DNA from: Streptomyces pseudogriseolus
GTDB lineage: Bacteria; Actinomycetota; Actinomycetes; Streptomycetales; Streptomycetaceae
Direction: 5' to 3'
DNA length: 36,220 bases
Assembly: GCA_002154585.1 (NCBI GenBank)
Contig: MUNG01000039.1
Span: 1 to 36,220, forward strand
Made by a program: the position numbers and the translations under genes. Below are positions 26,511 through 29,985 of the stretch, piece by piece. Below the pieces are notes generated by a model, which saw nothing but the letters and a program-made list of their open reading frames with translations, was not told the origin of the DNA and did no database searches. Within the stretch, counting starts at the first letter, position 1. Each line of letters opens with the position of its first letter.

Positions 26511-26996
26511 GTGCCTGCTCCACGGATGAGCGCGACACCGCTGCCGGGCATCGGTGTGAAATACGACCTCACCACGCGTGAGCACGAGCACCTGTCCGTC
26601 ATCGCGCACCGCGACGGCGCCCGGACGGTCAACGTCTACCGCTCCGACGACCCCGACGCCTGCGCCCGCTCGCTGCGGCTCAGCGTCGCCGAGTCGGCCG
26701 CGCTCATCGACGCGCTGATGCCCGCCCACCACAGCCCGAACCTGCTGCACACCACCGACCTGGGTCTGGTCGCCGAGCGCATCGAACTGTCCTCGGTCTC
26801 CCACTGGAACGGACGGCTGCTCGGCGAGACCCGCATGCGCACCGACACCGGGGCGTCGATCGTCGCCGTCCTGCGCCGCGCGGAGGCGATCCCGTCACCC
26901 GCGCCGGATTTCCGGCTCGCCGGCGGGGACACACTGATCGTCATCGGCACCCGCGAGGGCATCGACGCCGCCGCCGAGATCCTCGGGCGGGAGTGA
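26511..26996 (+). CDS. RCK_C (TrkA-C) regulatory subunit of a cation/proton antiporter, KhtT type
   Basis: A 161-aa cytoplasmic protein. The N-terminal half (GIGVKYDLTTREHEHLSVIAHRDGARTV) matches the KhtT N-terminal domain, and residues from about 83 on form an RCK_C domain ending RLAGGDTLIVIGTREGIDAAAEIL. RCK_C domains of this type bind cyclic di-AMP in Bacillus KhtT and Streptomyces CpeA, which is family knowledge. The GTG at 26511 has AAGGGGA six bases upstream. The stop lies four bases before the antiporter start, so the pair is coupled. Confidence 0.88.
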   Translation: MPAPRMSATPLPGIGVKYDLTTREHEHLSVIAHRDGARTVNVYRSDDPDACARSLRLSVAESAALIDALMPAHHSPNLLHTTDLGLVAERIELSSVSHWNGRLLGETRMRTDTGASIVAVLRRAEAIPSPAPDFRLAGGDTLIVIGTREGIDAAAEILGRE

Positions 26997-27000
26997 CCGC

Positions 27001-28248
27001 GTGCACTCTTCCGCCATCTTCCTCATCGAGTTCGGCGCCATCATCCTCGGGCTCGGTCTCCTCGGCCGCCTCGCCGGACGCCTCCAGTTCTCGCCCATCC
27101 CCCTCTACCTGCTGGCCGGCCTCGCGTTCGGCGAGGGCGGCCTGCTGCCGCTCGGCGCCAGCGAGGAGTTCGTCGCCATCGGCGCCGAGATCGGCGTGAT
27201 CCTGCTGCTCCTCATGCTCGGCCTCGAGTACACGGCCAGCGACCTCGTCTCCAACCTCAAGACGCAGTACCCCGCCGGTCTCGTCGACATGACGCTCAAC
27301 GCCCTGCCCGGCGCCGCCCTCGCCCTGCTCATGGGCTGGGGCCCGGTCGCCGCCGTGGTGCTCGCGGGCGTCACCTGGATCTCCTCCTCCGGCGTCATCG
27401 CCAAGGTCCTCGGCGACCTCGGCCGCCTCGGCAACAGGGAGACCCCGGTCATCCTCAGCATCCTCGTCCTCGAGGACCTGGCGATGGCCGTCTACCTGCC
27501 GATCATCACGGCCCTGCTGGCGGGCGTCAGCCTCGCCGCGGGCAGCGTCACCCTCGCCATCGCGCTGGGCGTCGCCGGCCTCGTGCTCTTCGTCGCCGTC
27601 CGCTACGGCCGCGTGATCTCCCGCTTCGTCTCCAGCGACGACCCGGAGAAGCTGCTGCTCGTCGTGCTCGGACTGACCCTGCTGGTCGCCGGCCTCGCCC
27701 AGCAGCTCCAGGTGTCGGCCGCCGTGGGCGCGTTCCTCGTCGGCATCGCCCTCTCGGGCGAGGTCGCGGAAGGCGCGCACAACCTGCTCGCCCCGCTGCG
27801 CGACCTGTTCGCCGCGGTGTTCTTCGTCTTCTTCGGCCTGCACACCGACCCCGAGTCCATCCCGCCGGTCATCCTCCCGGCGCTCGGCCTGGCCGTCGTC
27901 ACCGCCCTGACGAAGATCGCCACCGGCTGGTGGGCGGCCCGCCGGGCCGGGATCTCCGTCAAGGGCCGCTGGCGCGCGGGCGGCACCCTGGTGGCGCGCG
28001 GCGAGTTCTCCATCGTCATCGCCGGACTCGCGGTCACCGCCGGCATCGAGCCCCAGCTCGGCCCGCTGGCCACCGCGTACGTCCTGGTCCTGGTGGTGCT
28101 CGGACCGCTCACCGCCCGCTACACGGAGCCGATCGCGATGCGCCTGGCCGGACGCGTGAAGCCCGCGCCCGACAGCGCGTCGGCCCAGCTCGCCACGCCC
28201 GCCGCGGAGACGCTGGAGCCGGTGGAGGACGGCGGCCGCGACCGCTGA
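27001..28248 (+). CDS. CPA2 cation/proton antiporter, KhtU/Kef type
   Basis: A 415-aa membrane protein with 12 or 13 hydrophobic helices. The family-typical LAGLAFGEGGLLPL, ISSSGVIAKVLGDLGRLGNRETPVILSILVLEDLAM and FFVFFGLHTDP are present. The ED pair in VLEDL lies at the usual ion-binding position of CPA2 transporters. It should exchange K+ or Na+ for H+ across the membrane under control of the RCK_C subunit encoded just before it. The GTG at 27001 follows the upstream stop by four bases. The C-terminal 35 residues are hydrophilic and no RCK_N domain is attached, consistent with a separate regulator. Confidence 0.92.
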   Translation: MHSSAIFLIEFGAIILGLGLLGRLAGRLQFSPIPLYLLAGLAFGEGGLLPLGASEEFVAIGAEIGVILLLLMLGLEYTASDLVSNLKTQYPAGLVDMTLNALPGAALALLMGWGPVAAVVLAGVTWISSSGVIAKVLGDLGRLGNRETPVILSILVLEDLAMAVYLPIITALLAGVSLAAGSVTLAIALGVAGLVLFVAVRYGRVISRFVSSDDPEKLLLVVLGLTLLVAGLAQQLQVSAAVGAFLVGIALSGEVAEGAHNLLAPLRDLFAAVFFVFFGLHTDPESIPPVILPALGLAVVTALTKIATGWWAARRAGISVKGRWRAGGTLVARGEFSIVIAGLAVTAGIEPQLGPLATAYVLVLVVLGPLTARYTEPIAMRLAGRVKPAPDSASAQLATPAAETLEPVEDGGRDR

Positions 28249-28325: not shown

Positions 28326-29402
28326 TCAGTCGGTCAGCCGCACCGGCATCAGCAGCGAGAACGTGTGCTCGTCGTCGGGCCGGCGGAGCACGAGCGGCGC
28401 CGTGGGCGCGCCGAACTCCAGTACGAGCCGGTCACCGCCCGCCGCGGCGAGCGCGTCCAGCAGGAACGCCCGGTTCACCGCGACGAGGTCTTGGCCGTCG
28501 GCGCCCTCCGGGACGGGGACGGCCCGGCCGTCCTCCGTCACCTCCAGCACCGTCAACTCGTACCCCGTCCCGCCGTCCTCGTGCAGCCGCACCGGACCCG
28601 TGCGCACCGCCTCCGTGAACGCCGCCACGTCCACCTCGGCACGGCGTCCGGCGGGCAGCCGCACCAGCCGCCGGTAGTCCGGGAAGTCCTGCTCCAGACA
28701 CCGGCCGCCGGTCTGCCGGTCACCGGCCTCCAGGGTCACGCGGCCGTCGTCCACGACGAGGCGCACCTCGTCCGCTCCGTCCAGCAGCGCCCGCATCGCG
28801 TCCGCGAGCGGCAGCGGCACGGTCGCCTGCACACGGCCGCCGCCCCCGTGCCCGCCGGCGGCGGTGCGCGCCACCGCCATCCGGTAGCGGTCGGTGGCCA
28901 CGGCGTGCAGCGTGTCGCCCTCGGCGTCGAGATGGACGCCGGCGAGCACCGGAAGCTCCGGGTCGGTCCCGGCCGCGAAACGGACCGCGTCCAGCGCGGC
29001 GGCCAGACCGGGACCGGACACGGACAGCCGCGCGGCGGTGCGGGGTGTGGTCATGAGGGGGTACTCCCTGTCGTCGAGAAGGTCCACAAGCGCGGAGAAC
29101 TCGGCACGGGCGGCCGACAGCCCCTCCTCCAGCCGGCGCAGATGCGCCCGGAGGAGCCCGCGTACGAGATCGGTGTCGGCGGCCGTCCAGCCGGCCAGGA
29201 CCAGCCGGACGTCCGCCAGCGGCATGCCGGCGCGGCGCAGCCGGGACAGCACCCGGGCCTCGCCGAGCTGCTCCGGCGCGTACCAGCGGTAGCCCGTGAC
29301 CGGGTCGACCTGGTCGGGGACCAGGACACCGGCACGGTCGTAGAACCGCAGGGCGCTGACGCCCAGCCCGCTCGCGCGGGCCATCTCACCAATGCTGCGC
29401 AT
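28326..29402 (-). CDS. MerR regulator fused to DNA polymerase III beta-clamp domains II and III
   Basis: A 358-aa two-part protein. Residues 1-70 are a MerR winged helix (SIGEMARASGLGVSALRFYD, GYRWYAPEQLGEARVL) followed by a dimerising helix to about 115. Residues 120-358 are the middle and C-terminal domains of a DnaN sliding clamp: LPVLAGVHLDAEGDTLHAVA, ATDRYRMAV (169-177), DFPDYRRLV (239-247), the domain III helix NRAFLLDALAA, GAPTAPLVLR and the clamp C-terminus LMPVRL (351-356). Clamp domain I is absent and the MerR unit sits in its place. The ATG at 29402 has GGAG upstream. It may be a DNA-bound regulator whose sensor is a clamp fold, or one that competes for clamp partners; both are inference. 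Confidence 0.9.
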   Translation of the reverse strand: MRSIGEMARASGLGVSALRFYDRAGVLVPDQVDPVTGYRWYAPEQLGEARVLSRLRRAGMPLADVRLVLAGWTAADTDLVRGLLRAHLRRLEEGLSAARAEFSALVDLLDDREYPLMTTPRTAARLSVSGPGLAAALDAVRFAAGTDPELPVLAGVHLDAEGDTLHAVATDRYRMAVARTAAGGHGGGGRVQATVPLPLADAMRALLDGADEVRLVVDDGRVTLEAGDRQTGGRCLEQDFPDYRRLVRLPAGRRAEVDVAAFTEAVRTGPVRLHEDGGTGYELTVLEVTEDGRAVPVPEGADGQDLVAVNRAFLLDALAAAGGDRLVLEFGAPTAPLVLRRPDDEHTFSLLMPVRLTD

Positions 29403-29640
29403 CTCGCTCTCCACACCTCGGACCCTGCCGCCTCGACCAGGTCGAGGGTCAAACCCCGCCTCTCCGACGCGTACGGCCGACCGGGTGACGATGTCACCCC
29501 CGCGGGCGGAGCTGGAGCCCACGGCGTACCACCGGCGCGCGGCGGCGCGTTGCTCCGGCATGGACAGCACTGGGACGGCGCGGCGCCTTCTCGGGCACGG
29601 CGCCGTGAGCGGGCCGTACGCGCGACTGACCGGCGGGCAT

Positions 29641-29985
29641 GTGGCGAACACACCGATCTACGCGGAACTCGTCGCGGAGTGGCGGGCGAAGGGCCACACC
29701 GTACCGGGGCATCCGGACGGGCTGTGGGCGTCCTTCGCCGTCGTGACCGCGAGCGACCGCGGCCCGGCGCCCCACGTGCCGTTCCGCGTGCCCGTTCCCC
29801 TGCTGGGACCCGCGACGTCCTCCGCGAGGGCGGTGTGGGCGCCCGAGGCGAGGGCCGCGGAGGCGCCCGAGGCGGGGGTCGCGGAGGCGCCCTCGGCGGG
29901 GGCCGGTGAGGTGTCCTCGGAGACGTCCGAGGAGGCGCCCGAGCCGGACCTCACCAGCAGTCCGGACCCCCCTGATCCGCGCTGA
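29641..29985 (+). CDS. Small hypothetical protein with Ala/Glu/Pro repeat tail
   Basis: About 114 aa from the GTG at 29641. The first 40 residues (NTPIYAELVAEWRAKGHTVP, DGLWASF) look like a folded segment found in short Streptomyces proteins, and third codon positions are almost all G or C. From residue 60 it becomes a low-complexity run of AEAPEAG-like units encoded by a short DNA repeat, then Pro/Asp-rich. No function can be given. An in-frame ATG at 29560 is a possible earlier start. Its end overlaps the end of the convergent gene by 35 bp. Confidence 0.45.
   Translation: MANTPIYAELVAEWRAKGHTVPGHPDGLWASFAVVTASDRGPAPHVPFRVPVPLLGPATSSARAVWAPEARAAEAPEAGVAEAPSAGAGEVSSETSEEAPEPDLTSSPDPPDPR

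What the first reader, a model, noticed from the sequence alone, without database searches (positions are those of the whole stretch)
28326..29402. MerR regulator with a sliding-clamp (DnaN) body
The sequence shows a MerR winged helix where clamp domain I would be, joined through a helix to recognisable clamp domains II and III, including ATDRYRMAV, DFPDYRRLV and the LMPVRL end. A MerR dimer would bring together two two-thirds clamps, four clamp domains instead of six, so a closed ring around DNA is doubtful. The clamp part may act as a ligand or protein sensor, or may bind clamp-binding motifs of replication and repair proteins and so tie transcription to replication status.
Basis: partly seen in the sequence, partly recalled or inferred. 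Interest (0 to 1): 0.75.

Follow-up and report, generated by a model that had tools for sequence, protein, structure and literature searches.

The report
Self-regulated decoy sliding-clamp trap
A Streptomyces gene joins a drug-sensor type of gene switch to two thirds of the DNA-replication sliding clamp, appears to switch itself on, and carries a conserved second start that would also make the clamp piece alone, which suggests a self-induced decoy that senses and soaks up something aimed at the cell's real clamp.

Summary
The fusion is real: a MerR winged helix and long helix followed by sliding-clamp (DnaN) domains II and III. It is accessory: 77 of 295 Streptomyces genomes match, 70 of them near full length. 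(1) The clamp's partner/antibiotic pocket is kept: 82% identity to host-type DnaN at 18 pocket positions versus 24% elsewhere, while ring-interface residues are lost. (2) Upstream lies a MerR-type promoter-operator, TTGACC-N19-CAGNGT with a dyad in the spacer, in 59 of 60 relatives; in 30 genomes searched the best site is a fusion promoter in 29. That suggests autoregulation. (3) At the linker, 57 of 57 relatives plus 20 of 20 further genes carry a Shine-Dalgarno-like pair (usually the rare codon AGG, then GAG) and an in-frame start that would release the two-domain clamp alone. This is the layout of the TipA and AlbA antibiotic-trapping regulators, with a severed drug target as the trap. Best reading: an autoinduced sensor-plus-decoy for clamp-pocket ligands, most likely griselimycin/mycoplanecin-type antibiotics. 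The sequence architecture is well supported; ligand, binding and protection are inferred.

The parts
29422..29452 (-). MerR-type promoter-operator TTGACC(-35)-19 bp-CAGGGT(-10), holding the dyad CCTCGACC T GGTCGAGG
   Evidence: 59 of 60 subfamily A upstream regions have TTGACCCT, 56 of them exactly 50 nt before the ATG; near-invariant motif against a poorly conserved flank; position checked
29412..29414 (-). probable start codon (GTG) of the long form, 7 nt after the -10 hexamer, so probably leaderless (inferred)
   Evidence: GTG/ATG at this place in 57 of 60 relatives; the downstream ATG is lost in 3 of 60 and in further genes such as L226 and L220; position
28326..29414 (-). long form, MerR-clamp fusion protein (362 aa from GTG; 358 aa from ATG 29402)
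29181..29402 (-). MerR winged helix-turn-helix domain, residues 1-74
   Evidence: Pfam MerR_1 at 3-70; high-confidence helices in the model
29064..29174 (-). long helix, residues 77-113, expected dimerisation coiled coil
   Evidence: one long helix in the model; dimer role by MerR-family analogy, not tested
29064..29069 (-). internal Shine-Dalgarno-like AGGGAG (codons AGG GAG, residues 112-113)
   Evidence: such a pair + start in 57 of 57 relatives; AGG at 46 of 51 Arg codons here versus 53 of 2283 other Arg codons in the same genes; 20 of 20 further genes
28326..29054 (-). predicted short form: clamp-only ORF from internal ATG (residue 117), 242 aa
   Evidence: the start lies in the low-confidence linker (pLDDT <50 at 115-120) just before clamp domain II
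28656..29033 (-). clamp domain II-like, residues 124-249; carries pocket positions L150 L153 T170 R172 Y173 R174 M175 P241 R245 L246
   Evidence: Pfam, model, pocket alignment
28329..28646 (-). clamp domain III-like, residues 253-358; carries pocket positions N310 F313 T334 L350 M352 P353 V354 R355; ring-interface residues not conserved
   Evidence: Pfam, model, alignment

Best explanation
An autoregulated sensor-and-trap of the TipA/AlbA layout whose ligand domain is a severed sliding clamp. Proposed working: (1) a dimeric long form (MerR + clamp II-III) sits on the 19-bp-spacer operator of its own promoter [operator shown by comparative sequence; binding and dimer inferred]. (2) A ligand that fits the clamp's partner pocket between domains II and III docks on it [pocket conservation shown; ligand inferred]. 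(3) The MerR part then distorts the promoter and switches it on [family knowledge]. (4) The one mRNA gives the long form and, from a conserved internal Shine-Dalgarno-like pair plus start, a two-domain clamp-only short form [signals shown; translation not shown]. (5) The short form cannot close a ring but keeps the pocket, so it soaks the ligand away from the essential DnaN [inferred]. Most likely ligand: actinomycete peptide antibiotics of the griselimycin/mycoplanecin kind, which bind this pocket of DnaN (PMC10817943, passages read).
For: Fusion and fold. Pocket: identity to host-type DnaN (10 rows) 0.82 at 18 pocket columns versus 0.24 at 217 others over 57 family rows, 0 of 20000 permutations; with DnaN-invariant columns only, 0.92 (16) versus 0.28 (150). 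The full-length paralog DnaN2 (6 rows) is closer to DnaN elsewhere (0.46) but keeps less of the pocket (0.63). Ring interface not kept: Ile272/Leu273 columns 0.00 and 0.04 identity; columns 301, 303, 304 gapped in 93%. Operator in 59 of 60; in 30 genomes the best site is a fusion promoter in 29. Internal pair + start in 57 of 57, AGG 46 of 51 versus 2.3% background; 20 of 20 further genes, kept where the amino acids differ (GAG GAG in L224; AAG AAG GAG after an altered linker in L220). Precedents in passages I read: TipA is called a minimal autoregulated system and makes TipAL/TipAS from alternative starts (PMC7762955); AlbA is assumed by its authors to make two products in analogy, a shorter AlbAS is described, and its promoter is shown beside MerR promoters with 19-bp spacers (PMC6078987, PMC10189885). 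Patchy distribution with plasmid copies; neighbours differ between lineages.
Against: No ligand is shown and no expression data were seen. Apart from 49 kb around the Embleya copy (no ORF above 1054 aa) I did not look for biosynthetic clusters, so there is no genomic link to a clamp antibiotic. The short form would also bind the cell's own clamp-binding proteins unless expression is tight or the pocket is selective (the window protein differs from host-type DnaN at two pocket positions, M175 for Phe and R245 for Thr). Subfamily B keeps less of the pocket (0.58), has mostly lost the N320/F323/T344 equivalents and shows no internal start, so the full scheme holds for subfamily A only. The relatives are not independent, so p-values and counts overstate. 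Foldseek rmsd to whole clamps is high (5.5-9.5 A in the 50 rows shown), so relative placement of parts is unsure. Duplex energy does not favour the internal start over the upstream ones. 41 weaker operator-like matches in 30 genomes exceed the 14 of the reversed-pattern control; only 10 of them were read.
Confidence: 0.5

Rival explanations
1. Sensor/titrator of the cell's own clamp-binding proteins: polymerases or repair factors dock on the MerR-clamp, and the induced short form competes for them, acting as a replication or mutagenesis brake.
For: The known partner motifs use this pocket (PMC11139829, passage read), and both subsites are kept in subfamily A. A clamp fragment without a ring could titrate partners.
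Against: Accessory in Streptomyces (77 of 295); the operator was recognised only at fusion promoters, although the weaker matches were not annotated; a constant supply of partners would be poor input for a switch (inference).
Confidence: 0.22
2. Anti-phage sensor/decoy: a phage protein that attacks or recruits the clamp through the pocket is detected, and the short form titrates it.
For: Phage proteins that target the clamp exist (Twort Gp168, in the review passage) and phages encode clamps. Patchy distribution and occurrence on large plasmids.
Against: Gp168 is said to bind the DNA channel, not the pocket. Defence-gene context was not tested (padloc not run).
Confidence: 0.12
3. The clamp body is only a scaffold: the ligand binds elsewhere and the pocket is kept for structural reasons.
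For: Several pocket residues are conserved in clamps in general, and positions 175 and 245 differ from host-type DnaN.
Against: Pocket columns stay far above other DnaN-invariant columns (0.92 versus 0.28), and DnaN2, matching the same three clamp domains, changes the pocket tail to MSVK.
Confidence: 0.1

Closest known systems
TipA (TipAL/TipAS), Streptomyces lividans, thiopeptide sensor and trap (PMC7762955, abstract and passages read)
   Same: MerR DNA-binding part + coiled coil + C-terminal ligand domain; autoregulated; two in-frame products, the short one being the ligand domain alone
   Different: The ligand domain is the helical TipAS fold (PF07739), not a sliding clamp; no PF07739 match was listed here. 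Products and trapping are described for TipA, only predicted here.
AlbA (AlbAL/AlbAS), Klebsiella, albicidin trap (PMC6078987, PMC10189885, passages read)
   Same: MerR-like regulator that binds a palindromic MerR-type promoter and activates transcription with the drug; a shorter product without the DNA-binding domain that traps a peptide antibiotic
   Different: Tandem TipAS-like domains, not a copy of the drug's target
DnaN, bacterial beta sliding clamp
   Same: Domains II and III by profile and fold; conserved partner/griselimycin pocket
   Different: Domain I absent, ring-interface residues lost, Lys198 in a gap; below the DnaN equivalog cut-off
GriR/MypR, resistance copies of DnaN in griselimycin/mycoplanecin clusters (PMC10817943, passages read)
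   Same: An extra clamp gene thought to protect against clamp antibiotics
   Different: Described as DnaN-encoding genes at biosynthetic clusters; the word MerR does not occur in that paper's main text. Their sequences were not compared here.

Membership tests
MerR transcription regulators | N-terminal MerR winged helix | tested here: met
   Pfam MerR_1 8.4e-12, MerR 3.9e-10, both over cut-off
MerR transcription regulators | long dimerisation helix after the winged helix | tested here: met
   helix 77-113 in the predicted model; dimerisation itself not tested
MerR transcription regulators | dyad operator in a 19-20 bp -35/-10 spacer | tested here: met
   TTGACC-N19-CAGNGT with dyad; TTGACCCT in 59 of 60; spacer rule from PMC9909328 (passages read)
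MerR transcription regulators | ligand-dependent activation by DNA distortion | not testable with these tools
   needs in vitro transcription or a reporter
TipA class | TipAS ligand domain PF07739 | tested here: not met
   no PF07739 match listed at E<=1; clamp domains instead
TipA class | short in-frame product of the ligand domain alone | tested here: inconclusive
   Shine-Dalgarno-like pair + start in 57 of 57 and in 20 of 20 further genes; protein product not shown
TipA class | binds and sequesters an antibiotic | not testable with these tools
   no binding data
DnaN sliding clamp | three clamp domains | tested here: not met
   domains II and III only; MerR in place of I
DnaN sliding clamp | head-to-tail ring interface (Ile272, Leu273, acidic residues of domain III) | tested here: not met
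   columns 272/273 0.00/0.04 identity; 301, 303, 304 gapped in 93%; residue list from PMC11139829 (section part read)
DnaN sliding clamp | partner-binding pocket | tested here: met
   0.82 identity at 18 pocket positions versus 0.24 elsewhere

The most novel reading that the evidence does not exclude
Streptomycetes carry a self-inducing immunity gene that uses a severed copy of an essential drug target (the sliding clamp) both as sensor and, through a second start codon, as a free decoy that mops up clamp-targeting antibiotics: target mimicry built into a MerR switch. The ligand domain would thereby report on unknown clamp-binding natural products.
Probability: 0.42. Interest if true: 0.85.

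Novelty: new variant of a known kind. Interest (0 to 1): 0.72.

Why it matters
If right, bacteria have turned a replication clamp into a regulated antibiotic decoy. That would give a natural resistance route to griselimycin-class drug leads other than extra DnaN copies, a ready-made biosensor for clamp-binding compounds (promoter plus MerR-clamp), and a case where an essential drug target was recruited as the ligand domain of a transcription factor. If the ligand is instead a host or phage protein, it would still be a direct link between the clamp's partner pocket and transcription. All parts are testable with one small gene.

Tried and rejected
Operon/guilt by association: neighbours of subfamily A are shared mainly among close relatives of the window (15 of 57 loci, window included, have the antiporter cluster) and differ elsewhere, so no function was read from them. 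A wider regulon: operator search with up to 3 mismatches in the own genome (3 hits, one of them its own promoter) and in 30 genomes (76 matches, reversed-pattern control 14). The best match is the known fusion's promoter in 28 of 30 genomes, a second fusion copy in G070 (L097), and unrelated in G058, whose own promoter has 4 mismatches or more. A script confirmed a fusion start right after the site in 28 of the 30 loci; of the two it did not, L115 carries the exact site of L055 and L110 is the unrelated one. Six matches are reverse readings of the same dyads; 41 remain, more than the control. I read 10 of these 41 plus the 2 in the own genome: all 12 match the -10 at 3 of 6 positions or fewer (the free N counted), and all lie in stop-free frames of 190-300 codons, which in such GC-rich DNA is weak evidence by itself. 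The other 31 were not read, and weaker sites are not excluded. Viral origin: 56 clamp relatives in viral contigs, no MerR-like motif in any of the 56 loci by one regular expression; no phage record covers 80% of the protein. A biosynthetic cluster beside the Embleya copy: no ORF above 1054 aa in 49 kb. Single origin of subfamilies A and B: each is a strong group (100/99, 100/98), but the branch that parts them from DnaN is weak (87/51). DnaN2 as source of the clamp part: it groups with DnaN, not with the fusions. Internal start by free energy alone: the window's internal site (-8.3) is not better than the stretches before the ATG (-9.8) or GTG (-9.3); the case rests on conservation. Dimer modelling could not be done.

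Full report
OBSERVATION. The minus-strand ORF at 28326-29402 encodes 358 aa with the three quoted motifs. Pfam finds MerR_1 at 3-70, clamp domain II at 133-242 and clamp domain III at 303-355; the DnaN profile TIGR00663 aligns 108-356 to its positions 109-367, so domain I is what is missing. Of the 60 PDB sequence hits shown (86 in all), those that match the C-terminal part are beta clamps, best 9.9e-18. An AlphaFold2 model built on 63 family members has mean pLDDT 90.6, pTM 0.66: winged helix within 1-74, one long helix 77-113, a low-confidence joint at 115-120, then two clamp-like domains. The 50 Foldseek hits shown are all bacterial clamps, some in complex with natural products; rmsd over whole chains is high (5.5-9.5 A), so only the fold, not the placement of parts, is claimed. 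The host is a Streptomyces close to S. cellulosae/albogriseolus/werraensis (89-90% protein identity), and its genome also holds a complete DnaN.

DISTRIBUTION. Subfamily A (E <= 1e-45) matches in 77 of 295 Streptomyces genomes, the own genome included: 70 in one near-full-length match, 2 in two pieces, 5 over part of the protein. In a phylum sample 10 of 396 genomes match at E <= 1e-27, in 4 of 236 genera; these include a more distant set at 31-39% identity, which belongs to a second subfamily B. Seven plasmid records hold a place covering at least 80% of the query; five of these are annotated simply 'MerR family transcriptional regulator', two show no annotation there. In a tree of 45 clamp parts A (17 rows) and B (10 rows) are each one side of a strong branch (100/99, 100/98); whether they share one fusion event is not settled, the branch parting them from DnaN being 87/51.

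THE POCKET IS KEPT, THE RING IS NOT. Using the pocket residues listed in PMC11139829 (passage read), the window protein has the host-type DnaN residue at 16 of 18 positions: L150 L153 T170 R172 Y173 R174 P241 L246 L350 M352 N310 F313 T334 P353 V354 R355, differing at M175 and R245. Across 57 subfamily A rows identity to the DnaN majority (10 rows: the own genome and nine relatives) is 0.82 at 18 pocket columns and 0.24 at the other 217 (0 of 20000 permutations); restricted to DnaN-invariant columns it is 0.92 (16) versus 0.28 (150). By contrast Ile272/Leu273 and the acidic residues of the ring interface are not kept, and Lys198 falls in a gap in all 57. DnaN2, a full-length Streptomyces paralog (6 rows), shows the opposite trend: closer to DnaN elsewhere (0.46) but with a changed pocket tail (MSVK; pocket 0.63). 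Griselimycin and mycoplanecin A occupy this pocket, and Arg365 of E. coli DnaN (R355 here) is a hydrogen-bond partner of mycoplanecin A (PMC10817943, passages read).

OPERATOR AND AUTOREGULATION. Upstream of the gene lies TTGACC-CTCGACCTGGTCGAGGCGG-CAGGGT: a 19-bp spacer with an 8+1+8 dyad (29452-29422). Of 60 subfamily A upstream regions (of 66 printed; the other six are subfamily B and L078) 59 have TTGACCCT, 56 of them exactly 50 nt before the ATG, with an almost invariant motif against a poorly conserved flank. The exception, L077, has a second fusion copy with the operator elsewhere in its genome. Subfamily B carries a variant, TTGACCTTC..., at the corresponding place. MerR promoters typically have such 19-20 bp spacers (PMC9909328, passages read). 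Searched with up to 3 mismatches, the best site is a fusion promoter in 29 of 30 other genomes. Weaker matches (41 in those genomes, control 14) remain; the 12 I read, 10 of these and 2 in the own genome, lack a fitting -10 and lie in stop-free frames. So the only promoters recognised with the full element are those of fusion genes; a wider regulon through weaker sites is not excluded. A GTG or ATG 12 nt upstream of the ATG at 29402 is kept in 57 of 60, while the ATG is replaced in 3 of 60 and in further genes such as L226 and L220; since the GTG falls 7 nt after the -10 box, the long form is probably leaderless (inference).

A SECOND START. At the end of the coiled coil, just before and in the joint that the model leaves unsure, the DNA reads AGG GAG ... 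ATG. All 57 subfamily A genes examined (of 60; three near-copies left out) have an AGG (46), CGG (5), AAG (5) or CAG (1) codon before GAG, followed at 6-9 nt by an in-frame ATG (53) or GTG (4); the script scored one of them, L073, at a TTG 3 nt away, but its ATG is at 6 nt. Where the codon is Arg it is AGG in 46 of 51 cases, against 53 of 2283 other Arg codons in the same genes. As a further test I took 23 loci not examined before; three proved identical to discovery genes over the 600 bases compared. Of the remaining 20, 17 were parsed by script and 3 read by eye: all 20 have the Shine-Dalgarno-like pair and start, and all 20 have the operator (16 by exact string; in L217 the printed stretch begins inside it; 3 by eye). 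In L224 the codons are GAG GAG and in L220 AAG AAG GAG after an altered linker: the amino acids change but the ribosome-binding signal stays. This is hard to explain by selection on a flexible linker and easy to explain by translation of a clamp-only product of 242 aa. Duplex energy alone does not single the site out. These genes are related, so the counts are not independent events.

MECHANISM AND COMPARISON. Own-promoter MerR operator, C-terminal ligand domain and a second in-frame product that is the ligand domain alone are the layout of TipA (PMC7762955) and, by its authors' analogy, AlbA (PMC6078987, PMC10189885), which sense and trap peptide antibiotics. Here the trap is not a TipAS domain (no PF07739 match listed) but two thirds of the target of another antibiotic class. 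I therefore propose an autoinduced sensor plus decoy for clamp-pocket ligands, and name griselimycin/mycoplanecin-type peptides as the likeliest ligands. Shown: fusion, predicted fold, pocket conservation, operator conservation, internal start signals, patchy distribution. Inferred: DNA binding, dimer, ligand, activation, translation of the short form, protection. Subfamily B shares fusion and operator type but shows no internal start, and keeps mainly the subsite I side and the C-terminal part of the pocket; in 6 of the 10 subfamily B loci compared it is followed by a small gene with weak, below-cut-off TPR matches in the two scanned, so it may work differently.

LITERATURE. Searches combining MerR with sliding clamp, DnaN, DNA polymerase III beta, fusion, Streptomyces and domain names listed no paper that I recognised as describing this fusion; two searches returned no paper. 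Most listed papers were seen only as titles and abstract beginnings, and subscription journals are largely not held.

Noticed in passing
L118-L123 (Streptomyces genomes): Streptomyces carry a full three-domain DnaN paralog (DnaN2) whose C-terminus reads MSVKPLV or alike instead of MPVRL, so the partner pocket is altered.
   Followed up: partly
L146-L154, L156; L159: Subfamily B MerR-clamp fusions (mostly MPIGVFARRTGL-like) have their own TTGACCTTC-type operator, no internal start seen, and in 6 of 10 loci a small TPR-like gene directly downstream; a B-like copy (30% to the window protein) lies between transposase genes on a Streptomyces plasmid (L159).
   Followed up: partly
L079, L126, L128, L129: A similar MerR head is fused in Streptomyces and relatives to PP2C-type phosphatase domains and to TPR repeats (Pfam run on L079 and L129; L126 and L128 judged by eye).
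   Followed up: no
L238 (Embleya sp. NBC_00896, 3.1-Mb replicon, record 1424035 and 1445878): A MerR-clamp fusion lies about 21 kb from a second full-length dnaN (48.6% to the Streptomyces one). A paper on Embleya (PMC13152386, passages read) remarks on a dnaN copy on a large replicon of another strain. No NRPS-sized ORF lies in the 49 kb fetched.
   Followed up: partly
L077 and L097/L132 (S. stelliscabiei genome): Two fusion copies in one genome; one has the operator, the other lacks it at the usual place.
   Followed up: partly
window 26511-28248 (+): TrkA_C-domain protein followed by a cation/proton antiporter, convergent with the fusion gene; shared mainly with close relatives. It resembles the KhtT/KhtU pair (recalled).
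   Followed up: no
window 29392-29985 (+): An ORF of 197 aa overlaps the promoter and start of the fusion gene on the other strand; it was not tested for being real.
   Followed up: no
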